From Betaproteobacteria bacterium HGW-Betaproteobacteria-18 (GTDB lineage: Bacteria > Pseudomonadota > Gammaproteobacteria > Burkholderiales > Burkholderiaceae_C): DNA of 36,429 bases. Of the stretch, positions 12,842 through 24,002 are shown piece by piece (positions within the stretch are counted from its first letter, which is position 1; each line of letters opens with the position of its first letter). Under the pieces are notes generated by a model, which was given only the letters and a program-made list of their open reading frames with translations, did no database searches and was not told the origin of the DNA. Position numbers and translations under genes: made by a program. The DNA lies in assembly GCA_002842265.1 (NCBI GenBank), contig PHCO01000008.1, positions 1 through 36,429 on the forward strand. Reading direction: 5' to 3'.

Positions 12842-12842
12842 A

Positions 12843-13882
12843 CGGCAGGTGGCGCTGCACGCCAGCTACGGCCAGTGGGCGGCCCGCAGTGCCGGCCTGG
12901 TGCAGCGGCTGCGCGCCGCCGGTTTGCAGCCCGGCGACCGCGTGATGCTTTTCATGCGCAACCACCCGCGCTACCTTGAAGTGCTGTGGGGCGCCTGGTG
13001 GGCGGGTCTGGTGGTGGTGCCGGTCAACGCCAAACTGCACACCCGCGAGGTCGAGTGGATCATCGACAACGCGCAGGCAAGTTGGGCTTTTGTCACCAAC
13101 GATGTCGCCCCAGCCGCGCTGGCGGGGCTGGGGCATCAGATGGACATTGAAAGCCAGGAGGCCGACCAATTGCTGGCACCGGTGACCGATGCGACATCGC
13201 GCGCGCCCTGCAGGTGATGGGGTCGGTGTTTGTCCATATCTACGGCCAGGGCGAAACTCCCATGGTGGCCACGGCGCTGTCCAGGGCGCATCTGACTGAC
13301 AGCGAGCATCCCCGCTATCTGGAACGAATTGCTTCGGTGGGCGTGGCGCAAACGCCGGTGCTGATTCGTGTGGCCGATGCCCAAGGCCAACCGCTGCCCG
13401 TGGGAGCCGTGGGCGAGGTGCTGGTGCAGGGCGACAGTGTGATGGCCGGCTATTGGCGCAATCCGGAGGCCATAAATCAGACGCTGCGCGACGGCTGGCT
13501 CTTCACCGGTGACGTGGGCAGCCTGGATGCGGATGGATTTTTGACGCTCAAAGACCGCAGCAAGGACCTGATCATCAGCGGCGGCTCCAACATCTACCCA
13601 CGTGAAGTCGAAGAAGTACTGCTCACGCTGGACGGTGTGGCCGAGGTGGCGGTGGTCGGCGCGCCGGATGCCGAGTGGGGCGAAGTGGTGGTGGCCTTTG
13701 TCGTGCTACAACCTGATGCGGCGGTGGATACTGCCGATCTCGATGCCCATTGCCTGGCCCACATGGGCCGCTTCAAGCGCCCCAAGCGCTACCGCCTGGT
13801 GGCCGAGTTACCCAAAAATAACTACGGCAAGGTGCTCAAAACCGAACTGCGCGCCATGCTTGTCGCTGACAAAATCGCGTGA
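12843..13882 (+). pseudogene. Decayed acyl-CoA synthetase (AMP-binding enzyme)
   Basis: Two pieces of one adenylate-forming enzyme in different frames. The first (12843 to about 13190) gives an N-terminal part without a start: QWAARSAGLVQRLRAAGLQPGDRV and GAWWAGLVVVPVNAKL. The second (about 13185-13882) gives the C-terminal part: YGQGETPM, GYWRNPEA, GWLFTGDVG, the hinge LKDRSKDLIISGG, and the catalytic-lysine region NNYGKVLKTEL. The middle, including the ATP-binding TSGTTG-PK loop (roughly 150-200 residues), is deleted and the join shifts frame. No start codon or ribosome site is visible and an in-frame stop lies at 12831-12833. It cannot encode an active ligase. The original substrate (fatty or aryl acid) cannot be told. 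Confidence 0.88.
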
Positions 13883-13921
13883 TCGTCACGCCCTCTGCCA
13901 CCCATTTTTAAAGGAATCGCC

Positions 13922-14008
13922 ATGGATCAAGAACCACCTGCCGGTTTGGAAAAACGCAATATCTGGCTGCGCGGCCTCTTGATGATTCTGATGGGCCAGC
14001 CTCTGTAG
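13922..14008 (+). pseudogene. Truncated 5' end of a DUF4389-like membrane protein gene
   Basis: A good ribosome site (AAAGGA) and ATG open a reading frame of only 28 codons. It begins MDQEPPAGLEKRN and runs into IWLRGLLMILMGQ, which resembles the N-terminus of DUF4389 proteins commonly found near denitrification genes, then stops abruptly. The usual further membrane segments are absent. The break at about 13995-14008 coincides with the edge of the minus-strand pyr/TRAP operon, so this is probably the left scar of the insertion. The DUF4389 match is from memory of the family and is short. Confidence 0.55.
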
Positions 14009-14040
14009 CCAGTATCAGAAATTCGAGAATCCCTCGCAAA

Positions 14041-14367
14041 TCAGAATTCACGCACATTCCACTCATAGTCGATGGCGATCGCACTCGCTGTTTGCAAGCG
14101 CTGCGACGCATCCTGAGGCAAGGCTGCAACGATGCGTTTGCTGAAGCCAACCAGAACCTCCTTGGCGCGATTCGCCAACTCTGGATCAACTCCCTGGTCC
14201 TCGTATCTCATGACATAGGCATGAGCGGCAACGCCTACAACGTAATAAAGCGCGGCGTTTTCCGGATCGGACTTCATCAATTGAAAGGCTTTCTTCGACA
14301 ATTCCTTGAACTGATCAGTGCCCGCAAAGCCTTCTTCAAATACCTGCGCAATTTCTGAAAATTTCAT
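14041..14367 (-). CDS. Small protein of unknown function, last gene of the pyr/TRAP operon
   Basis: A 107-residue, apparently all-alpha, soluble protein that I do not recognise. It has no signal peptide, no membrane segment and no cysteines. It opens MKFSEIAQVFEEGF and contains two helical stretches separated by a Gly-rich turn. I start it at 14367, where a helix-like N-terminus begins; an upstream in-frame ATG at 14412 would overlap the pyrE-like gene. The gap to that gene is 22 bp, so it is very likely co-transcribed. The tandem-helix pattern (ENAALYYVVGVAAHAYVMRYED) loosely recalls TPR-type helical repeats, but I assign no function. Confidence 0.6.
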   Translation of the reverse strand: MKFSEIAQVFEEGFAGTDQFKELSKKAFQLMKSDPENAALYYVVGVAAHAYVMRYEDQGVDPELANRAKEVLVGFSKRIVAALPQDASQRLQTASAIAIDYEWNVREF

Positions 14368-14389
14368 ATTGGTTTTGCTTAAATAAAGT

Positions 14390-15064
14390 TTATGAAGAGG
14401 CAGGTGGCGCACCTATGCCACCGTGTGCCAGAGACCAGCCGGACGGATTTTTGATGAATGCGTCCAATTCATCCAGCGATTTTCCGTCGAATGCACCTCG
14501 CTCTCGAGCGACATCACGTACATCGGACCAATCCGCCATTGCATGAACACGAATCCCATGAGCCGAAAGCGCAAGCTCCGCCGAGAATGTACCGTAGCTA
14601 AAGACAACAAACAAGTCTTGAACAAGCAGTCCCGCATCTTTCAAAGCGTTAGAGAAAGTCACTTTTGAGTGACCAGCAGCAATCAAGTCGTCGATCAAAA
14701 GCACCTTGCTTCCGGGCGTGAAGACGCCTTCCACCTGGGTCCGACCACGCGGCTTTTTGCGGACATACAGCATGGGAATATCCAGGGCTTCAGCGATCCA
14801 GGCCGCCAAGGCGATCCCACTGGCTTCGCCTCCGGACACCGCATCGACGTTCGCCAGCGCGTTTTCGGCTTTGAGCATCTCAAGACCACTTGCCACGAGT
14901 TGCTTGCGAATTTTCGGGAAGGAGATCAGCCTGCGGCAATCCATGTAGACAGGGGTAGCCCAGCCCGATGGCAATCGAAACGGCTCGTCAGTTCGAACTG
15001 AAACACAGCCAGCGTCCAGCAGCAATCCGGCTGCCAGGTATCTGTGGTTAAGAGGATTGGTCAC
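14390..15064 (-). CDS. pyrE: Orotate phosphoribosyltransferase-like protein (PyrE family)
   Basis: A 224-residue type I phosphoribosyltransferase. PyrE converts orotate and PRPP to OMP. The start is GTG at 15064 with GGAG 5 bp upstream. Visible: GGEASGIALAAW (78-89), the mobile-loop region YVRKKPRGRTQVEG (100-113) and the PRPP loop LIDDLIAAGHSK (123-134). The overall pattern, including a downstream FVVFSYGTF block, resembles the PyrE type I associate with alphaproteobacteria. Two differences stand out: the PRPP loop reads AAGHS where E. coli PyrE has TAGTA, and the mobile loop looks a few residues shorter and lacks the usual His. It may be an orotate enzyme with altered kinetics or one for a related base. 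It lies inside the TRAP-pyrK-pyrD operon, apart from housekeeping pyr genes. Confidence 0.8.
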   Translation of the reverse strand: MTNPLNHRYLAAGLLLDAGCVSVRTDEPFRLPSGWATPVYMDCRRLISFPKIRKQLVASGLEMLKAENALANVDAVSGGEASGIALAAWIAEALDIPMLYVRKKPRGRTQVEGVFTPGSKVLLIDDLIAAGHSKVTFSNALKDAGLLVQDLFVVFSYGTFSAELALSAHGIRVHAMADWSDVRDVARERGAFDGKSLDELDAFIKNPSGWSLAHGGIGAPPASS

Positions 15065-15080
15065 GAAAACTCCATTGAAG

Positions 15081-15989
15081 TTAGATGCGCTCTATCAACT
15101 TGCGAAGCCGCTGCGCGCCCGTTTTGCCCTTGTAGGCACTTTTCCACAATCGTTTGATCATATCTTCGTACATGCGTATGGCTTCTTTCGAGGCTGTCAC
15201 GGTAGCGATGCCATTTCGCACATTGGGAAGCTCACCCAGTCTGAAGGGACTGACAGCCAGCACCGTGCGCTTCGGACCTGAGAAAACCTGAAAGGTCGAG
15301 GCCGGCATGGCGTCATCAACCAAGCCAATCTGGACGTGCAACGGCTCACTTTCCATGAGGTCCGCGATTCGGCTCACCTCGTTGCGAGCAGCCTGAATAC
15401 GCAACGTGCGAATGTCATCAGGCAGATCCACGCGCCCCAGTAGGCCGGTGTGGAGAAATCGCTCCAGTTCGCGCAATCCAATCAGACTCAGGATATTGGG
15501 CTTGCGCAGCTCGAAATATGCCTTTCGCTCCGCCATGATGCTCAGCATCTGCTCGACATCAGCTTCAACCGGTCCTTTGCCCAGTCCTCTGGGCGAGGCT
15601 TCCATCAACATAGAGCGCAAATACGAAAGGTACTCGTCTGAGGTGAGCAGCAAGGAAATTGGTTCGAAATGGGCCAATATCCGATCCGATGTCTGCTCCA
15701 GTTGCCGCATCCGTTCGAGAAAGCCAAGTGCCGTTGAATAGTATTCAACCTCGACACCCAATAGCGAAGCAATGGACGTTCCAATCAACTGCGCCAAGCG
15801 TTCCAGCGTCTCAATTTTGACAATCTCACCTTTCTCCATGCGGTACACAACCGCCCGTGAAACGCCGAGCTGGGCGGCAACATCTTCTGCCTGCAGTGAA
15901 GCACCGATCCGATAGGCTTTGAGGCGGTCCCCCAGGGCTTCATAGTCGATCGATGAAGCTGGCAGAGGTGTGCGGGTCGTGGTCAACAT
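15081..15989 (-). CDS. XRE-family transcriptional regulator of the pyr/TRAP operon
   Basis: A 302-residue protein with an N-terminal helix-turn-helix of the Cro/CI type (residues 18-79, core AEDVAAQLGVSRAVVYRMEKG). A long C-terminal domain of about 210 residues follows that I do not recognise and that could sense a ligand. It is embedded in the operon (36 bp after the hydrolase gene, 16 bp before the pyrE-like gene), so it is probably co-expressed and autoregulatory. The imperfect inverted repeat inside the operon promoter (22156-22177) is a candidate binding site. The inducer would by inference be an orotate-like compound. Confidence 0.8.
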   Translation of the reverse strand: MLTTTRTPLPASSIDYEALGDRLKAYRIGASLQAEDVAAQLGVSRAVVYRMEKGEIVKIETLERLAQLIGTSIASLLGVEVEYYSTALGFLERMRQLEQTSDRILAHFEPISLLLTSDEYLSYLRSMLMEASPRGLGKGPVEADVEQMLSIMAERKAYFELRKPNILSLIGLRELERFLHTGLLGRVDLPDDIRTLRIQAARNEVSRIADLMESEPLHVQIGLVDDAMPASTFQVFSGPKRTVLAVSPFRLGELPNVRNGIATVTASKEAIRMYEDMIKRLWKSAYKGKTGAQRLRKLIERI

Positions 15990-16025
15990 GGCGGCCTGTT
16001 TATCTGCATTTTTAATCGAAATCGC

Positions 16026-17288
16026 TCAGTCGATTTGACTGATGGCGTCGCTGAGTACCTGAACACCGAGCATGAAGTCATCCATATCCATGGCCTCATG
16101 GGGGTTGTGTGAGCCGTTCTGGTTGCGCACGAAGAGCATGCCACTAGGTATGCCTGCGTTCGCAAAGAGGGAGGCATCATGACCTGCTCCGCTGGGGAGC
16201 ACTTCAAAGGGTGTGCCGTGCATGGCGCATGATTTTGAAAAAATCGTGCAGATGCGCTCATCCATGGTGGCCGGCTCGCTGAGCAAGCGGCGGTCGAACT
16301 CAAAGCGGACACCACGTTCCCGGCTGATGGACTTCGCCTCCGCCTGCACCAGTTGGTAAAAGGCCTCCAGCGTGTCCGTGCTCTTGCTGCGAGCCTCCAG
16401 ACTGAAGCTGACTCTGCCTGGAATGCGGGAGATGGCGTGCTCAGCAGCATCCGTTTGCACAATTCCGGCCGTGACCACCAGGTCAGTTCCGCGTTCAAGC
16501 AATTCACGCCAGTGCGCGTCCAGGCGCATGATGAGATCGGAGACCGCAAACATGGCGTCGTGACGCAACCAGCGCGGCACCACACCCGAATGTTGGGCAT
16601 CGCCGAAACATTCGATCCGGTTGTGCCGGACATTGCCACGAATACCCGAAACCACGGCCAGGGACAATTGCCGTGCCACCATGACGGGACCCTGCTCTAT
16701 ATGGAGTTCAAGATAAGCCTTGACGCTGGCCTTGTCGATCAACAGTTCCTGATTGCGTATCGCCTCGACATCCGCCCCCTCGCGCCGCATGCATTCCCCC
16801 AAGGCATCTCCGGTGCTTCTTTGCCTGAGATCGAGGTCAGCCGCGTTAAGCTTTCCAAACAACGCACCGGAGCCCACATAGGCCTTGCCGAACCAGGCGC
16901 TTTCCTCACCGCGCAAGGCGATGACTTTGAGGGGCCTGGGGTCGCAGGTTTTGCTTCGTTGGCGCGCCACCAGACACAGCAAGCCAGCCACGACGCCGGC
17001 CAGACCGTCAAAGTTTCCTCCCTGCGGAACGGAGTCAATGTGGGACCCGACCCACACTGAAGGAACGCCCTGCACCGCTTCGCTCGTCGAGAAAACAAGA
17101 TTGGCGGCACGATCCGTTTCAACAACAAGACCCTCAGCCAGAGCGAATTCACGCAAGCGACTGGCAGCCGCGGTCTCGCCGCTGCCATAACTCTCGCGAG
17201 TGACACCGACGCCGTCAAAAGAGATTTCCCGAATATCTGCAAACAGCATTTCAGCAAGATACCGGTAGTCGTTGAGTTTCATGATCAT
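16026..17288 (-). CDS. Zn-dependent N-carbamoyl-L-amino acid hydrolase (M20, hydantoinase/carbamoylase family)
   Basis: A 420-residue member of the family that includes N-carbamoyl-L-amino acid hydrolase, allantoate amidohydrolase and beta-ureidopropionase, which split a carbamoyl group to CO2 and NH3. Motifs: GSHIDSVPQGGNFDG (about 82-96, metal ligands His83 and Asp94), EES (128-130), the subfamily mark ELHIEQGP (194-201) and SHNPHE with His394 near the C-terminus. The start at 17288 (ATG, with GGAG somewhat far upstream) is preferred; an upstream in-frame start would overlap pyrD. Placed directly after pyrKD, its likely substrate is N-carbamoyl-L-aspartate (ureidosuccinate), which would make it a ureidosuccinase. 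That substrate is inference; sequence alone gives only the family. Confidence 0.85.
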   Translation of the reverse strand: MIMKLNDYRYLAEMLFADIREISFDGVGVTRESYGSGETAAASRLREFALAEGLVVETDRAANLVFSTSEAVQGVPSVWVGSHIDSVPQGGNFDGLAGVVAGLLCLVARQRSKTCDPRPLKVIALRGEESAWFGKAYVGSGALFGKLNAADLDLRQRSTGDALGECMRREGADVEAIRNQELLIDKASVKAYLELHIEQGPVMVARQLSLAVVSGIRGNVRHNRIECFGDAQHSGVVPRWLRHDAMFAVSDLIMRLDAHWRELLERGTDLVVTAGIVQTDAAEHAISRIPGRVSFSLEARSKSTDTLEAFYQLVQAEAKSISRERGVRFEFDRRLLSEPATMDERICTIFSKSCAMHGTPFEVLPSGAGHDASLFANAGIPSGMLFVRNQNGSHNPHEAMDMDDFMLGVQVLSDAISQID

Positions 17289-17338
17289 GGGAACAGCAGC
17301 TCCGGAATGGTTAGGCAATGCCTTGGGTGAGATGACCA

Positions 17339-18289
17339 TCAACCCGACTGCTGGGCAAAGCGCAGCCACCGGTCCGAAAGCTGACGGTCAAGCTTGACCT
17401 GGCCTGTCAAATCGCGGATATTCTCGATGTCAAATTCCTCACAGTAGGCATGGAGCCCGTCAATGATCTTCTGCATCGCGCCCGGGTCCAGAAATGACGC
17501 GGTGCCGACCTGCACCGCACTGGCACCGGCCAGCATGAATTCGACCGCGTCATCCGCATTGGAAATGCCGCCGCAGCCAATGATGGGGATGCGCACACTG
17601 CGGTAACACTGATGGACCATGCGCAGCGCAATGGGCTTGATGGCAGGCCCTGACAGTCCACCCATGACATTGCCGAGCTTGGGTTTACGGGTACGCACAT
17701 CGATCGACATGCCAAGTACCGTGTTGCCCATCACCAGGGCATCCGCACCCGCCTCCTCGGCGGCCTTGGCCACAGCGGCGACATGCGAGGCGTTCGGCGT
17801 GAGCTTGGCCCACACCGGATGATGGGTTTTCCGGCGAATGGCGCTGATCACCTTGTAGGTTGTTTCAGGCGTCATGGCAAACGCCATGCCATCGGCCTCA
17901 AGATTCGGGCACGAGATGTTGGCCTCGATCACGGCCACCTCGGGCAAAGACATCTCGGCAATAGCGTCGGCAAACTCATCCACGGTATCGGCAGAGATCG
18001 ACACCACCACCGGCGTATCGAATTTTGTATAAGGCGGCAACACCGAACGACGGTAATAGTCCAGGCCTTTGCTGGGAATGCCGATGGAGTTCAACATGCC
18101 GCTGTAGGCTTCGGCCACACGGGGCGTCGGGTTGCCGGCACGCGACTTGGGCGACACGCTTTTAATCACCAGCGCCCCCAGCTTGTTGAAGTCCAGAGCT
18201 TCGCAATACTCGATGGCAAAGCAGCCGGAGGCAGGCATCACCGGGTTGCGAAGGCTGAGGTCGCCAACTCTGACGTTGAGATTAACCAA
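17339..18289 (-). CDS. pyrD: Dihydroorotate dehydrogenase, class 1B catalytic subunit
   Basis: A 316-residue FMN protein interconverting dihydroorotate and orotate. The class 1 catalytic cysteine is in NISCPN (Cys127). Class 1B-type blocks AKLTPN and GGLSGPAIKPIALRMV, and the C-terminal phosphate-binding GCGGISNADDA, are present. I place the start at a TTG (18289) preceded by a perfect GGAGG 6 bp upstream. The reading frame stays open upstream, but that stretch lies within pyrK and is not conserved-looking. The gene overlaps pyrK by 8 bp, as expected for the NAD-linked PyrDK heterotetramer. Betaproteobacteria normally carry a class 2, quinone-linked enzyme, so a 1B enzyme here is unusual. Confidence 0.9.
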   Translation of the reverse strand: MVNLNVRVGDLSLRNPVMPASGCFAIEYCEALDFNKLGALVIKSVSPKSRAGNPTPRVAEAYSGMLNSIGIPSKGLDYYRRSVLPPYTKFDTPVVVSISADTVDEFADAIAEMSLPEVAVIEANISCPNLEADGMAFAMTPETTYKVISAIRRKTHHPVWAKLTPNASHVAAVAKAAEEAGADALVMGNTVLGMSIDVRTRKPKLGNVMGGLSGPAIKPIALRMVHQCYRSVRIPIIGCGGISNADDAVEFMLAGASAVQVGTASFLDPGAMQKIIDGLHAYCEEFDIENIRDLTGQVKLDRQLSDRWLRFAQQSG

Positions 18290-19130
18290 ACTCCACCTCC
18301 CCGACGACATTGCGGATTGAAAATACCGGGCCTTCGCGGCAAACACGCAGAAACTGCTTTTCTCCTTCATGGTTGAACAGTCGTACGCAAGACAGACAGA
18401 CACCCATGCCACAGGCCATACGCTGTTCCATGGCAACTTCACCCCGGGTTTGGGGAAAGTCCTTCAGCACATGCTGCAACAGCATCAAAAGACGGTGTGA
18501 GCCACACGTGTAGACCACGTCATGGCTTTCAGTGCCGAGCAACTCACGCACTAGAGATTCAACCGACGCCACGGATGAGCTGCCATCGGAGTCATAGAGG
18601 CAATGCACATCCGCCTCGACCCCGCGCAAGAACTCTTCGCGCATCAGGTCCTGTGGCGCCCGCGCGGACATGATGGCCGTGATCTTGATACCCGCCTTGG
18701 CCGCGTGCTGCAGCAACGGCGCCATGGTGGCCAGACCGACGCCTCGCGCCACCACCATAATGCGCTTGAAGCCCGGCTCCAAGACAAAGGTATTGCCCAA
18801 CGGACCCACAATGTCCATATGGCGTCCCACCGCCAGCGTGGCCATGGCAGTGGTGCCGAGGCCGTTCACGCTGTAAAGAAACTCAATGGTGCCGGCTTCT
18901 GGCCCTACCCCATAGACACTCATGGGCCGAAGCAGGAACGGCTGCAGGTCGTCGATGGGCGGACATTTCAGCTGGTAGAACTGCCCCGGCCTGGTCACGC
19001 CGGCCAGATCGGCATCTGCCTTGAGCCGAAGGTACTTGTAGCGTTCGTTGACCCAGCGGTGTTCAGTCACATCGCATCGGTGCGAGGCCACCTTTTCAGC
19101 ATTTCGTTGGAAGCAACTTGTGGTATTCAT
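18282..19130 (-). CDS. pyrK: PyrK-type electron-transfer subunit of dihydroorotate dehydrogenase
   Basis: A 282-residue ferredoxin-reductase-like protein. It has an FAD-binding RPMS motif (68-71), a nucleotide-binding segment ARGVGLATMAPLL (about 128-140) and the diagnostic C-terminal [2Fe-2S] pattern Cys240, Cys245, Cys248 and Cys264 followed by EGPVF. PyrK passes electrons between NAD(H) and the FMN of PyrD through FAD and the iron-sulfur cluster. The 3' end carries the ribosome site of pyrD and overlaps it, implying coupled synthesis. The N-terminus is about 20 residues longer than typical PyrK, so a slightly later start is possible. Confidence 0.9.
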   Translation of the reverse strand: MNTTSCFQRNAEKVASHRCDVTEHRWVNERYKYLRLKADADLAGVTRPGQFYQLKCPPIDDLQPFLLRPMSVYGVGPEAGTIEFLYSVNGLGTTAMATLAVGRHMDIVGPLGNTFVLEPGFKRIMVVARGVGLATMAPLLQHAAKAGIKITAIMSARAPQDLMREEFLRGVEADVHCLYDSDGSSSVASVESLVRELLGTESHDVVYTCGSHRLLMLLQHVLKDFPQTRGEVAMEQRMACGMGVCLSCVRLFNHEGEKQFLRVCREGPVFSIRNVVGEVEFG

Positions 19131-19186
19131 GGGGTTTTCTCGTCAAATGGTGGCGCCAAGTGGCTTCATCACTGATTGGCCGCAGA

Positions 19187-20470
19187 TCAGAGCTTTAACA
19201 ATTGCGGCAGCGTGGTCGACAACGCAGGGATGTAGCTCACCAGCGCCAGCACTACCAGGTTGACCATGATGAAAGGGACAATGCCGGCGACCACCGCCTC
19301 GACCGGTCGCTTCAAGGTGCCTGAGGTGACAAACAGGTCCAGTCCGAATGGCGGCGTGATCATGCCGATGCAGACATTCAGCACCACAAGAACGCCGAAG
19401 TGGATGGGATCGACGCCGAGGGCCATGGCGACCGGGAAAAGCGTGGGCAGAAAAATCAGCATGATCGAGTTGGGGTCCAGGAACATGCCCGCGAGCAAGA
19501 AGATCACATTCACCGACATGAGGAAATAGACCCAGTGAATGCCACTTGCCTTGATTTGCTGGAGAAACCAGACGTCCACACCGGACAGCGTCAGGAAATA
19601 GGCCAACAAGGCCCCCATCGCAAGAAGAATAAAGATCACAGAAGTCGAAACAGCGCTGCTCTTGGCGATAGCGAAGAAAGCGCGGGGACTGATCGATCGC
19701 AGGATCACCACCTCGACCACGGACGCATAGACCACGGAGACAGCAGCCGCTTCCGTAGCGGTAAAGACACCGCCAAAGATACCGCCCAGCACGATGACCT
19801 GCAGACCAATCACCCAGACTGCCCGTCTGACGGCGGCCAGGCGTTCACCCGCGGTTGCGCCTGCCGGTGCGCCGATCCGGTGGCGTGCTGTCTCGATGGC
19901 GACCAGTACCATGAAGGCCAAGCCCAGCACGAGACCGACGCCAAGGCCTGCAGCAAAGAGCTTGGCGATTGACGTGCCCGTCAACCAGCTGTAGACGACG
20001 AAAGAAATAGAGGGCGGGATCAGAAGCGCGCATTCAGCGCTGCTGGCGATGAGCCCAAGGCTGAACTTCTCCGAGAAACCGTTCTTGCGCAATTCGGGGT
20101 AAGCCATGCGACCCATGGCGGCCACGGTGGCAGGAGCGGACCCGGACGCAGCACCAAAGGCCATGTTCGCAATCACGGTGGAGTAGCCGATCCCGCCCCG
20201 CACCGACCCGACCATCAGCCGGAACAAGGTGGCAAGGTCACCCGCCATGCGCCCTTTCGCCATGATGTCGGCTGCAAAGATGAAAAACGGGATGGCCATC
20301 AGTGTGACCACCTCAACCCCGCCCACAATGCGTTGCCCCACGATCAAGTCGGGCAAATCCGAGAAAAACTGGTGCTTGACCAATAGGGACGGAATCCCCA
20401 TCACCAAAAACATTTCGGCACCCAGGATCAGTAGCACCAGGGCAAGCACAATAAGCGCAAGAACGACCAT
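19187..20470 (-). CDS. dctM: TRAP transporter large membrane subunit (DctM)
   Basis: A 427-residue, highly hydrophobic protein with about 12 membrane segments, the ion-coupled translocation subunit of a tripartite ATP-independent periplasmic transporter. Family marks include IPFFIFAADIMAKGRMAGDL, the FGAASGSAPATVAAMG segment, LIPPS and a C-terminal GMITPPFGLDLFVTSG. It lies 15 bp after dctQ and 56 bp before pyrK. The substrate is probably an organic acid; the downstream genes suggest orotate, dihydroorotate or N-carbamoylaspartate. Confidence 0.93.
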   Translation of the reverse strand: MVVLALIVLALVLLILGAEMFLVMGIPSLLVKHQFFSDLPDLIVGQRIVGGVEVVTLMAIPFFIFAADIMAKGRMAGDLATLFRLMVGSVRGGIGYSTVIANMAFGAASGSAPATVAAMGRMAYPELRKNGFSEKFSLGLIASSAECALLIPPSISFVVYSWLTGTSIAKLFAAGLGVGLVLGLAFMVLVAIETARHRIGAPAGATAGERLAAVRRAVWVIGLQVIVLGGIFGGVFTATEAAAVSVVYASVVEVVILRSISPRAFFAIAKSSAVSTSVIFILLAMGALLAYFLTLSGVDVWFLQQIKASGIHWVYFLMSVNVIFLLAGMFLDPNSIMLIFLPTLFPVAMALGVDPIHFGVLVVLNVCIGMITPPFGLDLFVTSGTLKRPVEAVVAGIVPFIMVNLVVLALVSYIPALSTTLPQLLKL

Positions 20471-20485
20471 GAATTGCTCCGAAAT

Positions 20486-20986
20486 CTAGAGGTGTTGACT
20501 CGGATCGAGCTCAACAGCGTGGCGGTTTGCCTTGGACAGCAATTCCAGCAGGTAGCGCAGGCTCAACAGGCCAAATCCAATCGGCATGACCACGTAAAGC
20601 CAGATCATCGATATGCCGAGCGTTGGGCTGATCTGCCCGCTGTCCGCAACAAACTGCGTGATATCCAACCCGATCTTCGTCAGATACAAGCTGAAAACCA
20701 GGCCGAGTAAGTCAATGACAAACTTGATCTTGCGACGCACGCCACTGTCCAGACGGGACAGCAAACTGGCCATCGCGATGTGGCGCCCCTGCTCGAGCCC
20801 GAGCGCCAGACCGACAAAAACCATGGCAACCACCAGGAACAGGGAAACCTCTTCCACCCAGGCCAGTGCAGGCGCCACCGAGGGCAGCAGTGTCCGGGCG
20901 AACACCATGCTCGCGTAGCCGAAGGATGCCAACACCATGATCACACCGAGGACGGCACCCTCGACGTTTCTGAGCAGATTCAACAT
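20486..20986 (-). CDS. dctQ: TRAP transporter small membrane subunit (DctQ)
   Basis: A 166-residue protein with four hydrophobic segments and the DctQ-type loop WVEEVSLFLVVAMVFVGLALGLEQGRHIAM (about 43-72). It bridges the solute receptor and the large subunit. The spacing of 17 bp from dctP and 15 bp to dctM indicates one transcript. Confidence 0.92.
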   Translation of the reverse strand: MLNLLRNVEGAVLGVIMVLASFGYASMVFARTLLPSVAPALAWVEEVSLFLVVAMVFVGLALGLEQGRHIAMASLLSRLDSGVRRKIKFVIDLLGLVFSLYLTKIGLDITQFVADSGQISPTLGISMIWLYVVMPIGFGLLSLRYLLELLSKANRHAVELDPSQHL

Positions 20987-21003
20987 GGGATTCTTTTTAG
21001 TGC

Positions 21004-22059
21004 TTACAAGCCAAGCTTCTTGCGCTCGGCATCCAGCGTTTCGAGAACCTTCTTGCCATCGGCGCCGGCTCGCTCAACATAAGCTGCGCGGGCACGCTCG
21101 GTGGTGGCCTTGGCAAACTTGGCGCGCTCGGCCTCGGAGGCTGTGCGCACATTGATCTTCGCGGCCTTCATCGTTTCGATGGCACTGCTCATGGCTTCTT
21201 CCTTCATTTTCCCGACCTCAGGCCCCACTTCAGCGAAGGCTTTGGTGATCACATCGCGATGGGCCTGGGGCAGCTTGTTCCACCAGACGTTGCTGAAGAG
21301 CACCAGGTCTTCCATCAAACCATGCTCACTCACGACCAGGTTCTTCTGGACTTCGTGAAACTTCATCGCGACAATGGCATCGGGTGGGTTCTCCTCACCG
21401 TCCACCAATCCAGTCTGAAGCGCGGTGTACAACTCACCGAAATTGATGGGCACGGCCGACGCGCCCACTGCGCCAAACTGTTCCACCAGAATCTTGGAGT
21501 CCATGATGCGGAATTTCTGCCCCCCCAGGGAACTCAGGTCGTCGAGCGGCTTGTTTGAGGTGAGGCTCTTGCGGCCGTTCGGCCAGATGGTCAGGGCATA
21601 CACGCCCTTGGTCTTGAACGATGCCAGTACAGCCTGTCCAAATGGGCCGCTGCGCAGCATCTGGGACTGCGCTCGATCGGTAGGATAGACATAGGGGATA
21701 TCGAGCACGGAGACAACGGGATTAAAGCCCCCCAGGAAGGCTGCAGGCATAACGACCGCTTCGATGGCGCCGAACTGCACGCCTTCAGTCATCTGTCGTG
21801 CATTGCCGAGCTGCGACGAGGGATAGAGCTTGAATTCGACCTCGCCCTTGGTCCGCTCGCTGACAAGAGCCGCCACGCGCTCAAGGCCTTTGTGACGCGG
21901 CTGGGTGGTCTGCTCCAGATGACCGATCTTGGCGGTGTATTTGACCGTTTGAGCCTGGACGCCTGCAGCGCCCAGAATCAAAAGACCCGACATGACAGCG
22001 GCGCAATAGGCGACGACCTTTTTGGTGACACTCATGGGCCTGGCATGAAAATTTTGCAT
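21004..22059 (-). CDS. dctP: TRAP transporter solute-binding protein (DctP)
   Basis: A periplasmic receptor of about 351 residues from the chosen start. A Sec signal runs to about the AGVQAQ cleavage region. The mature part has the DctP pattern, including GEVEFKLYPSSQLG, a GLVDGEENPP segment, and an Arg in GQKFRIM, the region that usually contacts the carboxylate of the ligand. The ATG at 22059 is preferred because AGGA lies 8 bp upstream; ATGs at 22068 and 22035 are alternatives, the last giving the shortest signal peptide. It is the first gene of the operon, about 85 bp downstream of a good promoter. A conserved carboxylate-binding Arg would suit an orotate-like acid. Confidence 0.92.
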   Translation of the reverse strand: MQNFHARPMSVTKKVVAYCAAVMSGLLILGAAGVQAQTVKYTAKIGHLEQTTQPRHKGLERVAALVSERTKGEVEFKLYPSSQLGNARQMTEGVQFGAIEAVVMPAAFLGGFNPVVSVLDIPYVYPTDRAQSQMLRSGPFGQAVLASFKTKGVYALTIWPNGRKSLTSNKPLDDLSSLGGQKFRIMDSKILVEQFGAVGASAVPINFGELYTALQTGLVDGEENPPDAIVAMKFHEVQKNLVVSEHGLMEDLVLFSNVWWNKLPQAHRDVITKAFAEVGPEVGKMKEEAMSSAIETMKAAKINVRTASEAERAKFAKATTERARAAYVERAGADGKKVLETLDAERKKLGL

Positions 22060-22152
22060 ATTGCTCATCCTGAAATGGAAGTAGTGATGAAATGCCAGCG
22101 AAAAGAGACGCTTGGCGACCTTCTGCCCAACGACATGTTAGAGCATGTTTTG

Positions 22153-22181
22153 ATATTAGTATCTTTTTTGAGACTAAACAA
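22153..22181 (-). promoter_or_regulatory. Promoter and candidate operator of the TRAP/pyr operon
   Basis: On the minus strand a -35 hexamer TTGTTT (22176-22181) is separated by exactly 17 bp from a -10 hexamer TAATAT (22153-22158). The spacer is bridged by an inverted repeat TTAGTCTC / GATACTAA (one mismatch, six As between; 22156-22177) that touches both hexamers. A protein bound there would block RNA polymerase. The XRE regulator encoded in the operon is the obvious candidate. Confidence 0.6.
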
Positions 22182-22224
22182 GAAATATTTACTAGGGGTT
22201 TTTACTGAGCACAACCATGCATGT

Positions 22225-22602
22225 TGCCTGGCGTGAAAACAGCAGGCGATAAATCGCCGCCTTGTTGTAATAGGCGATGGCGCTGATGGGTACTGGCAAG
22301 ATGAAGACCACGTGGTAGTAATCCACCGGCAGCAAGTCAGCCTGACGATCTGCAAGCCACCGCTTGGCCGCGCTGGCCTGGCACTTGGGGCAATGGCGGT
22401 TGCGGCATGAGTTGTAGGCAACTTGGTCATGCCCGCAGCCATCACAGTGCAACACATGTCCCCCCAGCGCCGCTGAACGGCACTGTTCTATGGCCGACAT
22501 CACCTTGAGTTGACCCAGGCTCAGGTGCCCCTGCTGGGCTTTGCGCCAAGCGGGTCCATGGGTGTGGAAGATGTCGGCGACCTCTAAGGCAAGGTGCCCC
22601 AC
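22225..22602 (-). pseudogene. IS91-type transposase, N-terminal fragment
   Basis: About 126 residues are recognisable: EVADIFHTHGPAW, LSLGQLKVMSAIEQCRSAALGGHV, the zinc ribbon HCDGCGH and SCRNRHCPKC, then DYYHVVFILPVPI and YNKAAIYRLLF. The family protein continues for about another 250 residues with the catalytic tyrosine-containing domain, which is missing. The frame runs on to a stop at 22192 in unrelated sequence. The break near 22225 marks a recombination junction next to the operon promoter. Confidence 0.85.
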
Positions 22603-22611
22603 GGAACGGGT

Positions 22612-22880
22612 CTAAGCAGGTTTCAGGGTTTCCAGTGGGCTGATCACTTCGCGCAGGACGTCGGTGGCGACCTGGACGTAGTGCGCCGTGGTGTCCAGGC
22701 GCTGATGCCCCAGTAAAACCTGGATCACCCGGATGTCGACCTTCTGCTCCAGCAGGTGGGTGGCAAAGCTGTGGCAAGGTGTGCATGGACACACGCTTGT
22801 CGATCTTTGCTATCGTGGCTGCATCGTGGATGGCACGGTTGAGTTGGCGGGTGCTCTTCCCTACCCCTATCCCCCGCTGC
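22612..22880 (-). pseudogene. Tyrosine recombinase (integrase) C-terminal fragment, frameshifted
   Basis: Two frames together give [26 protein letters not shown], then [18 protein letters not shown] and [17 protein letters not shown]. This is the catalytic half of an integrase of the type that accompanies IS91-like transposases. Between TTG (Leu) and CAC (His) only one base remains where the HxxR arginine codon should be, so a 2-base deletion has removed the catalytic Arg and shifted the frame. The N-terminal two thirds are absent beyond about 22880. Confidence 0.8.
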
Positions 22881-23033
22881 GAAGCTGCTGTCTATGAATC
22901 AAAAAATGGCAGTCCTCCCATCTGCCCACGGCCCACACCAGCCGATCATCGAAAAACTTTCAAAACTTGAACGACTTCCCGCCCCTGTATCCCCTATCAT
23001 TTGCGTGCCGGGCGCCGTCCGTTTTGAGTATTT

Positions 23034-23852
23034 ATGCCACCTTCCACCAACCCATCACTTGTTGAATTGCGCAACCTGAGCTTTGGCTACGGGGAAAGCG
23101 CCGTGCTGGACGACGTTTCGCTGCGCATTCCCAGGAGCAAGGTCACTGCGCTCATCGGTCCGATGGGCGGCGGCAAGACCACCACGCTGCGCCTGATGGG
23201 CGGCCAGTACCGTGCCTGGTCGGGGCAAATGCTGTTCGACGGGCAGGATTTGGGCCCGATGGACCAGCAACAGCTCTATGCCGTCAGGCGGCGCATGGGC
23301 ATGCTGTACCAGTTCGGCGCCCTATTTGCCGACATGAGCGTGTTCGAGAACGTGGCCTTCCCGCTGCGCGAGCACACCGATTTGCCCGAAGCACTGATCC
23401 GCGACATTGTGCTGATGAAGCTCAATGCGGTGGGCCTGCGCAACGCGCGCGACCTCATGCCCAGCGAGGTGTCGGGCGGCATGGCCAAGCGCATCGGCAT
23501 CGCGCGGGCGATTGCACTGGACCCCGAACTGGTGATGTACGACGAGCCGTTTTCCGGCCTCGACCCGATTTCGCTGCATGTCGCCGCGCGGCTGATTCGC
23601 CAGCTCAACGACTCGATGGGGTTGACCAGTGTTTTTGTCTCGCATGAACTGACCCAAACCCTCGAGATTGCCGACCATGTGGTCATTCTCGACAATGGCA
23701 AGGTCGCGTTCCAGGGCACAGTGGAGGAGGTGCGCGCCAGTACCGATCCGCTGGTTTACCAGTATGTGAATGAACGCCCGGATGGCCCGGTGCGGTTTCA
23801 CTACCCGGCTGTTGCCATTGAAGAAGATTTTGGCATTCCCAGCCATGCCTGA
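23034..23852 (+). CDS. mlaF: MlaF-like ABC transporter ATPase (orphan)
   Basis: A 272-residue ATPase resembling MlaF/Ttg2A of the phospholipid-trafficking Mla system. Visible: Walker A GPMGGGKTT (43-51), the MlaF-typical Q-loop LYQFGALFADMSVFENVAFPLREHT (about 90-114), signature VSGGM, Walker B LVMYDEPFSGLDP and the switch His in VSHEL. Length and motifs suggest an intact ATPase. The usual partners mlaE, D, C and B are not next to it: upstream is transposon debris and downstream is the narK2 promoter. No strong ribosome site is seen. It may serve an Mla complex encoded elsewhere or be a leftover of rearrangement. Confidence 0.85.
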   Translation: MPPSTNPSLVELRNLSFGYGESAVLDDVSLRIPRSKVTALIGPMGGGKTTTLRLMGGQYRAWSGQMLFDGQDLGPMDQQQLYAVRRRMGMLYQFGALFADMSVFENVAFPLREHTDLPEALIRDIVLMKLNAVGLRNARDLMPSEVSGGMAKRIGIARAIALDPELVMYDEPFSGLDPISLHVAARLIRQLNDSMGLTSVFVSHELTQTLEIADHVVILDNGKVAFQGTVEEVRASTDPLVYQYVNERPDGPVRFHYPAVAIEEDFGIPSHA

Positions 23853-23872
23853 CTGACGCCAGGCGGCTCCGC

Positions 23873-23974
23873 CTAGTTCTCCCGAACTACCCCCCTGCCC
23901 CGCCGCATAGTTCCACAAACCCGCGCCGCCTGTACTTCAGAGGGATACCGCCAAAAGCCTGTCAAAACTACAGT
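23873..23974 (+). promoter_or_regulatory. narK2 promoter module shared with narK1
   Basis: The palindrome TAGTTC-TCCC-GAACTA (23874-23889), a second TAGTTCC (23908-23914), CAGAGGGATACCG (23938-23950) and TACAGT (23969-23974) repeat the narK1 elements at the same 34/30/31-bp spacing. The flanking CCTG-CAAAAC stretch before TACAGT is also shared. A small G+C-rich hairpin (AGGCG/CGCCT, 23861-23874) after mlaF abuts the module and could act as a weak terminator. This promoter probably drives narK2-narGHJI and perhaps the genes behind. Confidence 0.6.
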
Positions 23975-24002
23975 CGTGTCACACAAAACAGGAGTTAGTG
24001 AC

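What the first reader, a model, noticed from the sequence alone, without database searches (positions are those of the whole stretch)
14041..22181. Candidate orotate/dihydroorotate uptake and use operon inside a denitrification region
One minus-strand operon links a TRAP transporter (dctPQM) with NAD-type dihydroorotate dehydrogenase (pyrK, pyrD 1B), an N-carbamoyl amino acid hydrolase, a PyrE-like transferase, an XRE regulator and a small unknown protein. Known biochemistry: Clostridium oroticum degrades orotate through dihydroorotate and N-carbamoylaspartate to aspartate, and the 1B enzyme can run in that direction. The genes therefore fit import of an orotate-like acid, then either salvage to OMP or breakdown to aspartate, NH3 and CO2. 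No dihydroorotase is in the operon, so the chromosomal PyrC would have to act, or the imported substrate is N-carbamoylaspartate itself. I know of no described TRAP system for these compounds.
Basis: partly seen in the sequence, partly recalled or inferred. Interest (0 to 1): 0.78.

Follow-up and report, generated by a model that had tools for sequence, protein, structure and literature searches.

The report
Orotate uptake and breakdown operon
A block of nine genes, apparently inserted between two nitrate-respiration genes, looks like a kit for importing the pyrimidine precursor orotate and breaking it down to aspartate; its transporter belongs to a family already seen holding orotate in a crystal, and the same kit recurs in many other bacteria.

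Summary
In detail: nine tightly packed minus-strand genes encode DctPQM, PyrK, class 1B PyrD, an M20 carbamoylase, an XRE regulator, a PyrE and a ~108-aa unknown. The orotate reading is strongly supported, with two corrections. A TRAP protein for orotate is in print: the window's DctP is 55% identical to PDB 4NN3, reported with bound orotic acid. The "missing" dihydroorotase is present in 20 of 38 related operons, beside the carbamoylase gene. Of 55 close DctP relatives 38 have pyrK+pyrD+M20 within 10 kb, against 0 of 25 distant ones, in about eight arrangements. The host genome has its own PyrC, quinone-type PyrD and a second PyrE, so these copies are extra. Most likely route: orotate, dihydroorotate, N-carbamoylaspartate, aspartate, with PyrE as a salvage branch. 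New here: a predicted operator (TCTCAAnnTTGAGA) in 20 of 29 XRE-bearing operons, which also marks dctP in two genomes where transporter and enzymes lie apart; a small helical protein family found only in such clusters among 98 stretches searched; and evidence that the block was inserted between narK1 and narK2 (adjacent in 3 of 3 same-genus genomes with narK1). No activity was measured.

The parts
21004..22068 (-). dctP: TRAP solute-binding protein, predicted orotate receptor
   Evidence: PF03480/TIGR00787; best PDB match 4nn3, 388.9 bits, 175 of 318 residues identical; N89,K167,R187,F210,N227 as in 4NN3; on one side of a 100/100 branch with 4NN3 and the 55 close DctPs
20486..20986 (-). dctQ: TRAP small permease
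   Evidence: PF04290
19187..20470 (-). dctM: TRAP large permease
   Evidence: TIGR00786 349.6 bits, cut-off 268
18282..19130 (-). pyrK: FAD/2Fe-2S electron-transfer subunit
   Evidence: PF10418; PyrK models NF000796-NF000799 hit but below cut-off
17339..18289 (-). pyrD class 1B: orotate/dihydroorotate dehydrogenase; TTG start at 18289 proposed
   Evidence: NF005574 372.7 bits, cut-off 269; ANISCPN motif; start candidates
16026..17288 (-). M20 N-carbamoyl-amino-acid hydrolase, proposed N-carbamoyl-L-aspartate amidohydrolase; start among 17288/17282/17249
   Evidence: TIGR01879 264 bits, cut-off 204; H110/D121/E155/E156/H223/R327/H421 kept in 47 or 48 of 48 rows
15081..15989 (-). XRE-family regulator, presumed regulator of the operon
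   Evidence: PF13560/PF01381; relatives in 29 of 55 close loci
14390..15064 (-). pyrE-like orotate phosphoribosyltransferase, with an active-site loop 3 residues shorter than in the four operon relatives aligned
   Evidence: NF001729 227.8 bits, cut-off 245; loop; second pyrE elsewhere in the genome
14041..14367 (-). small all-helical protein of unknown function, a family tied to these clusters
   Evidence: HMM hits in 28 of 98 sources, all 28 cluster-bearing; AF2 pLDDT 90.6
22160..22173 (.). candidate degenerate XRE operator (minus strand TCTCAAAAAAGATA), about 92 bp before dctP
   Evidence: second-best PWM score of the window, 12.0, below 29 of the 30 sites that made the PWM; 3 mismatches to consensus, 22-base dyad around it
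22192..22602 (-). IS91-type transposase remnant next to the operon
   Evidence: PF14319, NF033538: positions 1-127 of 356

Best explanation
The operon imports orotate from outside the cell (DctPQM) and degrades it reductively. PyrK-PyrD reduces orotate to dihydroorotate with NADH, running opposite to biosynthesis. Dihydroorotase opens the ring to N-carbamoyl-L-aspartate (chromosomal PyrC here, an operon-borne PyrC in many relatives). The M20 enzyme then hydrolyses this to L-aspartate, CO2 and NH3. The PyrE copy diverts part of the orotate to OMP (salvage). The XRE protein controls the set through a TCTCAAnnTTGAGA-type operator, with orotate or an intermediate as the likely signal. Shown here: gene content, homology, conserved association, a recurrent dyad at the predicted places in relatives, and probable insertion into the nar cluster. 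Inferred: substrate, direction of each reaction, and regulation.
For: DctP's closest solved relative is 4NN3, stated to hold orotic acid. 38 of 55 close DctP relatives lie within 10 kb of pyrK+pyrD+M20 and 0 of 25 distant ones do. The link survives about eight arrangements (14 gene-order strings). Dihydroorotase (TIGR00856, 430 bits against 293 for L038's) joins the set in 20 of 38, beside M20. The genome has its own PyrC, class 2 PyrD and second PyrE. PyrD scores as dihydroorotate dehydrogenase (373 over 269), not as dihydropyrimidine dehydrogenase PreA (140 under 335). Where dctP is unlinked but carries the operator (L051, L079), the enzyme cluster is elsewhere in the genome with the operator too.
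Against: No activity or binding was measured. [quoted passage not shown] 16 of 55 close DctP relatives have no such enzymes within 10 kb, and only 2 of these 16 were shown to carry the cluster elsewhere; five Alcanivorax-type loci (47-49%) sit among other genes, so similarity at that level does not fix the ligand. The pocket K, R, F and N are also common in the distant set; only N89 separates them (46 of 55 against 1 of 25). The M20 enzyme is above cut-off only for the general TIGR01879 model. PyrK is below its model cut-offs. G171, G204 and G377 have an M20 match but no PyrD match at 1e-60; in the two read (L128, L126) pyrE-M20 sits with ABC transporter genes. The operator is absent (2 mismatches allowed) from 9 of 29 XRE-bearing operons and from before pyrK in L020 and L125, whose XRE proteins are 72 and 79% identical to the window's.
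Confidence: 0.85

Rival explanations
1. Salvage only: orotate (or dihydroorotate, N-carbamoylaspartate) is imported as a pyrimidine precursor and PyrE makes OMP; PyrKD works in the oxidative direction.
For: A PyrE copy is in 35 of 38 operons; class 1B enzymes are reversible (recalled). Two loci with pyrE-M20-ABC lack PyrKD in the stretch read.
Against: Salvage of orotate needs neither PyrC nor a carbamoylase, yet M20 is in the set and PyrC joins it in 20 of 38. The window PyrE has a shortened loop.
Confidence: 0.08
2. The imported substrate is dihydroorotate or N-carbamoylaspartate rather than orotate.
For: Binding-protein pockets can be promiscuous (recalled); pyrE-M20 clusters without PyrKD nearby exist (L126, L128).
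Against: The structural relative holds orotic acid; PyrKD would be unnecessary for breakdown of either compound, yet all 38 close loci with M20 also have pyrK and pyrD.
Confidence: 0.12
3. A pathway for other pyrimidines, hydantoins or carbamoyl amino acids (uracil, hydantoin-type), with PyrD acting like dihydropyrimidine dehydrogenase.
For: The M20 family includes ErtE, allantoate and beta-alanine-synthase enzymes; DHOD-like dihydrouracil oxidases exist in fungi (listing, passages).
Against: PreA model 139.6 bits, far under its cut-off of 335; the ring-opening enzyme of the operons is a PyrC relative, TIGR00856 where scored.
Confidence: 0.04
4. A spare anaerobic pyrimidine biosynthesis set for denitrifying life.
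For: Class 1B PyrD needs no quinone (recalled; NAD+ as acceptor in the table of PMC10395836); the operon lies among nar/nos genes.
Against: Transporter and carbamoylase have no role in it; narK1 and narK2 are adjacent in 3 of 3 relatives with narK1, so the setting is an insertion; a class 2 PyrD is present.
Confidence: 0.02

Closest known systems
PDB 4NN3, DctP of Maridesulfovibrio salexigens with bound orotic acid (EFI screen, Vetting et al. 2015; that 4NN3 stems from that paper is recalled)
   Same: Same DctP clade; 55% identity; same five pocket residues.
   Different: Only the binding protein is known to me; I could not see its gene neighbourhood, and Vetting 2015 is not held.
Reductive orotate fermentation of Clostridium (Zymobacterium) oroticum
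   Same: Same proposed intermediates: dihydroorotate, N-carbamoylaspartate, aspartate (recalled biochemistry).
   Different: Firmicute fermentation; here Proteobacteria with a TRAP importer, M20 carbamoylase and XRE gene. The C. oroticum genes were not compared.
Class 1B dihydroorotate dehydrogenase PyrK-PyrD (PDB 1EP1-1EP3; organism Lactococcus lactis recalled)
   Same: PyrD 268 bits to 1ep1; pyrK and pyrD adjacent.
   Different: Extra copy beside a class 2 PyrD, in a transport/hydrolase operon.
ErtE N-carbamoyl-L-glutamate amidohydrolase and other M20 carbamoylases
   Same: Same family (270 bits to NF058540), metal ligands kept (their roles recalled).
   Different: Below the ErtE cut-off (520); proposed substrate one carbon shorter.

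Membership tests
TRAP transporter (DctPQM) | binding protein, small and large permease together | tested here: met
Orotate-binding DctP (4NN3 type) | sequence clade and pocket residues of 4NN3 | tested here: met
   the residues are not specific except N89, and the tree has long branches
Orotate-binding DctP (4NN3 type) | orotate affinity | not testable with these tools
   needs DSF/ITC
Class 1B dihydroorotate dehydrogenase | PyrD over NF005574 cut-off with cysteine motif | tested here: met
Class 1B dihydroorotate dehydrogenase | PyrK over its model cut-off | tested here: not met
   125.0 of 219 bits (NF000798); the Fe-S domain PF10418 is met
M20 hydantoinase/carbamoylase family | TIGR01879 over cut-off, metal ligands | tested here: met
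N-carbamoyl-L-aspartate amidohydrolase (EC 3.5.1.7) | activity on ureidosuccinate | not testable with these tools
   no substrate-specific model reached cut-off
Orotate phosphoribosyltransferase NF001729 | score over 245 bits | tested here: not met
   227.8 bits; relative L045 scores 377
Reductive orotate degradation pathway | DHOD + dihydroorotase + carbamoylaspartate hydrolase in one genome | tested here: met
   (homology only; the hydrolase's substrate is inferred)
HPt/CheA P1 domain (small protein) | fold plus phosphorylatable histidine | tested here: inconclusive

The most novel reading that the evidence does not exclude
A mobile, self-contained orotate-catabolic regulon of Proteobacteria. 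One XRE regulator reads orotate or dihydroorotate through TCTCAAnnTTGAGA operators placed before the transcription units of the set, even when the parts are scattered in the genome. The small helical protein is a dedicated new component, for instance an adaptor that couples PyrKD, dihydroorotase and carbamoylase or that modulates the regulator.
Probability: 0.35. Interest if true: 0.65.

Novelty: new variant of a known kind. Interest (0 to 1): 0.5.

Why it matters
Orotate breakdown is old biochemistry (recalled), but my searches of the held library turned up no paper on a gene set for it in Proteobacteria, judged from titles and the starts of abstracts. This operon gives candidate genes for each step, puts a physiological context around a TRAP protein that I found only as a crystal structure, and offers a predicted operator and an unnamed protein family to test. 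It also warns annotators that a pyrKD-pyrE cluster with a carbamoylase is probably catabolic, not biosynthetic.

Tried and rejected

Alignment A3 contains one row (L021) cut in the wrong frame; only the other rows were used, for the pyrD start.

The operator was found on the same loci on which its frequency is counted, with one simple base shuffle as control; close relatives (Stappia, Chelatococcus) are not independent. Nine of 29 XRE-bearing operons lack a site: four Chelatococcus loci and L039, L055, L058, L060, L063. Fourteen further sites in these 29 loci lie at no start of the set. Two operons without a found xre still have a site: L066, 184 bp before pyrK, and L068, 426 bp before the dctP match, just outside my 400-bp limit; both contigs are short upstream. 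The independent part of the evidence is L051/L079 with L145/L146. At up to 3 mismatches the window is expected to hold about 9.7 sites by chance and holds 5, so the 22160 site rests on its place and PWM rank (second; the first, 15809, is inside the xre coding sequence). No site was found in L023-L031.

I thought the conserved lysine would mark orotate DctPs; it does not. Finding the 4NN3 gene's own neighbourhood was not possible.
Full report
WHAT IS THERE. On the minus strand from 22068 down to 14041 lie dctP, dctQ, dctM, pyrK, pyrD, an M20 carbamoylase, an XRE regulator, pyrE and a small gene, with family matches as listed under parts. Gaps are 15-56 bases or overlaps. The listed pyrD and M20 starts are probably too long; 18289 (TTG, with GGAGGTGGAG before it) and 17249-17288 fit relatives better.

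THE TRANSPORTER. Of 95 distinct PDB sequences matched (60 shown), the first is 4nn3 at 388.9 bits; the next scores 162. [quoted passage not shown] A review (PMC5812351, passages) lists orotic acid among new TRAP ligands. The window protein is identical to 4NN3 at 175 of 318 positions and has the same five residues (I place N89 at position 76 with a one-residue shift from the HMMER alignment). K, R, F and N are also common in distant DctPs; N89 is in 46 of 55 close and 1 of 25 distant ones. In a maximum-likelihood tree of 63 rows (all 55 close loci, 6 of the 25 distant ones, window, 4NN3), the window, 4NN3 and all close loci lie on one side of a 100/100 branch; the window groups with three Phyllobacteriaceae loci, two of them Mesorhizobium (100/97). 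The program warns of long branches, the window's and 4NN3's among them.

NEIGHBOURHOOD TEST. A genome-contig scan with three DctPs returned 80 loci, the best of 140 confirmed. They split into 55 at 47-71% identity and 25 at 39% or less. Within 10 kb (less where contigs end), 38 of 55 carry pyrK, pyrD and M20; one more (L039) is cut by its contig end after pyrK-pyrD; 16 have none. Of the 25 distant loci 0 carry the set; three have a weak pyrD match only (76-117 bits). Among the 38: pyrE 35, xre 28, small gene 25, pyrC 20. Fourteen gene-order strings occur; setting aside absent genes and the direction of xre I read about eight arrangements, so the link is not one inherited string. By their titles the loci are mostly Alpha- and Betaproteobacteria, many of them MAGs.

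THE MISSING STEP. In six alphaproteobacterial operons with a 1.1-kb gap between M20 and pyrE, the gap holds a gene of one kind; L038's is TIGR00856 dihydroorotase, 430 bits against a cut-off of 293. By tblastn 20 of the 38 operons have it, beside M20 in each order string. The window genome has one such gene, on contig C182 (57% to L038's; 459 bits). It also has a quinone-type PyrD on C216 (514 bits, cut-off 457) and another PyrE on C453 (186, cut-off 106.8). The operon copies are therefore extra.

VARIANTS. G097 and G419 hold pyrK-pyrD-M20-xre-pyrE-small without TRAP matches in the stretch read. G566 and G497 hold pyrE-M20-pyrK-pyrD beside a GntR-type gene and amino-acid-type ABC genes; G204 has pyrE-M20 with the same kind of genes but no pyrKD in the stretch, and so has G171, where I saw the ABC genes but did not read the GntR in frame (ABC and GntR named by eye). 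L023-L031 hold pyrK and pyrD, and xre in 7 of 9; none has M20 or dctP matches, L025 has a weak dctM match. L028 also has a pyrC-like gene, and Mo-hydroxylase-like and Bug-like genes lie near in L026, L028 and L030 (names by eye).

RARITY AND TRANSFER. PyrD at 1e-60 is in 18 of 399 genomes of the order, M20 at 1e-100 in 8 of 399 of the family and 0 of 4 other genomes of the genus, a close DctP at 1e-90 in 2 of 398 of the phylum; the first, second and fourth counts include the window's genome. In the three same-genus genomes with narK1 (of four asked) the narK1 and narK2 matches lie 19-36 bases apart, and narG follows. In the window they are 11,134 bases apart, with acyl-CoA-ligase fragments, the operon, an IS91-type remnant and an MlaF-like ATPase gene (below the MlaF cut-off) between. 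G+C is 57.2% in the operon against 59.6 and 60.4% on either side. I read this as an insertion; the alternative, loss in all three relatives, is less simple.

REGULATION. In 28 upstream regions the exact dyad TCTCA-N4-TGAGA is in 11; the commonest dyad in one shuffle of the regions is in 2. With TCTCAAnnTTGAGA and up to two mismatches, 19 of 39 operon loci have a site in the 400 bp before dctP, all 19 among the 29 with xre and 0 of the 10 without; the rate elsewhere is 0.014 per 400 bp. Two of those 10 (L066, L068) have a site at other places of the set. Counting all transcription-unit starts, 20 of 29 have one. Outside the operon loci, 3 of 41 dctPs have a site upstream: L051, L079 and the distant L101. 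sought a related M20 (1e-80) in the genomes of these 41 loci (40 held, L102 not): it found one in those of L051 and L079, a 44% match in that of L042 and four 43-45% matches in that of the distant L094. For L051 and L079 it lies in an xre-pyrK-pyrD-M20 cluster with its own site; for the other two I did not look. The window's dctP has only a degenerate form, about 92 bp upstream, second in PWM score over the window but scoring below 29 of the 30 sites behind the PWM. L020 and L125, close relatives without TRAP genes, have no site before pyrK.

ENZYME DETAILS. In 48 M20 proteins the metal-binding and carboxylate-binding positions are kept in 47 or 48 rows, and R244 and R248 in 48; roles of these residues are recalled, and a contact for the second carboxylate is not identified. 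The window PyrE lacks three residues of the active-site loop that the four operon relatives in A5 have; G419's is also short, G097's is not. PyrE may thus be weak here, or have become a sensor.

SMALL PROTEIN. A profile from the window and relatives hits 28 of 98 sources: the window, G097, G419 and 25 of 39 operon loci, and none of the 41 other dctP loci. AF2 with 24 sequences gives five helices at pLDDT 90.6. Function unknown; my guess is an accessory or regulatory partner.

LITERATURE. Searches for orotate with TRAP transporter, catabolism terms, ureidosuccinase, orotate degradation phrases, nitrogen-source terms and C. oroticum listed no paper that, by title and start of abstract, treats an orotate-catabolic operon in Proteobacteria; one search showed 25 of 52 papers. 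I opened passages of four papers only. Subscription papers are mostly not held. The C. oroticum pathway itself is recalled.

Noticed in passing
12842-23975: About 11 kb between narK1 and narK2, which are adjacent in three same-genus genomes; it carries the operon, an IS91-type remnant, acyl-CoA-ligase fragments and an MlaF-like ATPase.
   Followed up: yes
12849-13882: Two pieces of one AMP-binding acyl-CoA ligase (PF00501 positions 22-100 and 314-384), middle missing: probably a decayed gene.
   Followed up: partly
L126, L128 (G204, G171): pyrE-M20 pairs with amino-acid-type ABC transporter genes but no PyrKD nearby: perhaps import of dihydroorotate or a carbamoyl amino acid.
   Followed up: partly
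L023-L031: pyrK-pyrD (with xre in 7 of 9) without M20 or dctP matches; in L026, L028 and L030 Mo-hydroxylase-like and Bug-like binding-protein genes (by eye) lie near, suggesting another heterocycle pathway in this order.
   Followed up: partly
L081-L085: Alcanivorax-type DctPs, 47-49% identical to the window's, without the pyr genes; in L085 a Rieske-type ferredoxin gene (by eye) follows dctM: same binding-protein group, probably a different acid.
   Followed up: no
15809-15822: The window's best match to the XRE operator lies inside the xre coding sequence itself; possibly chance from the conserved VKIET codons.
   Followed up: no
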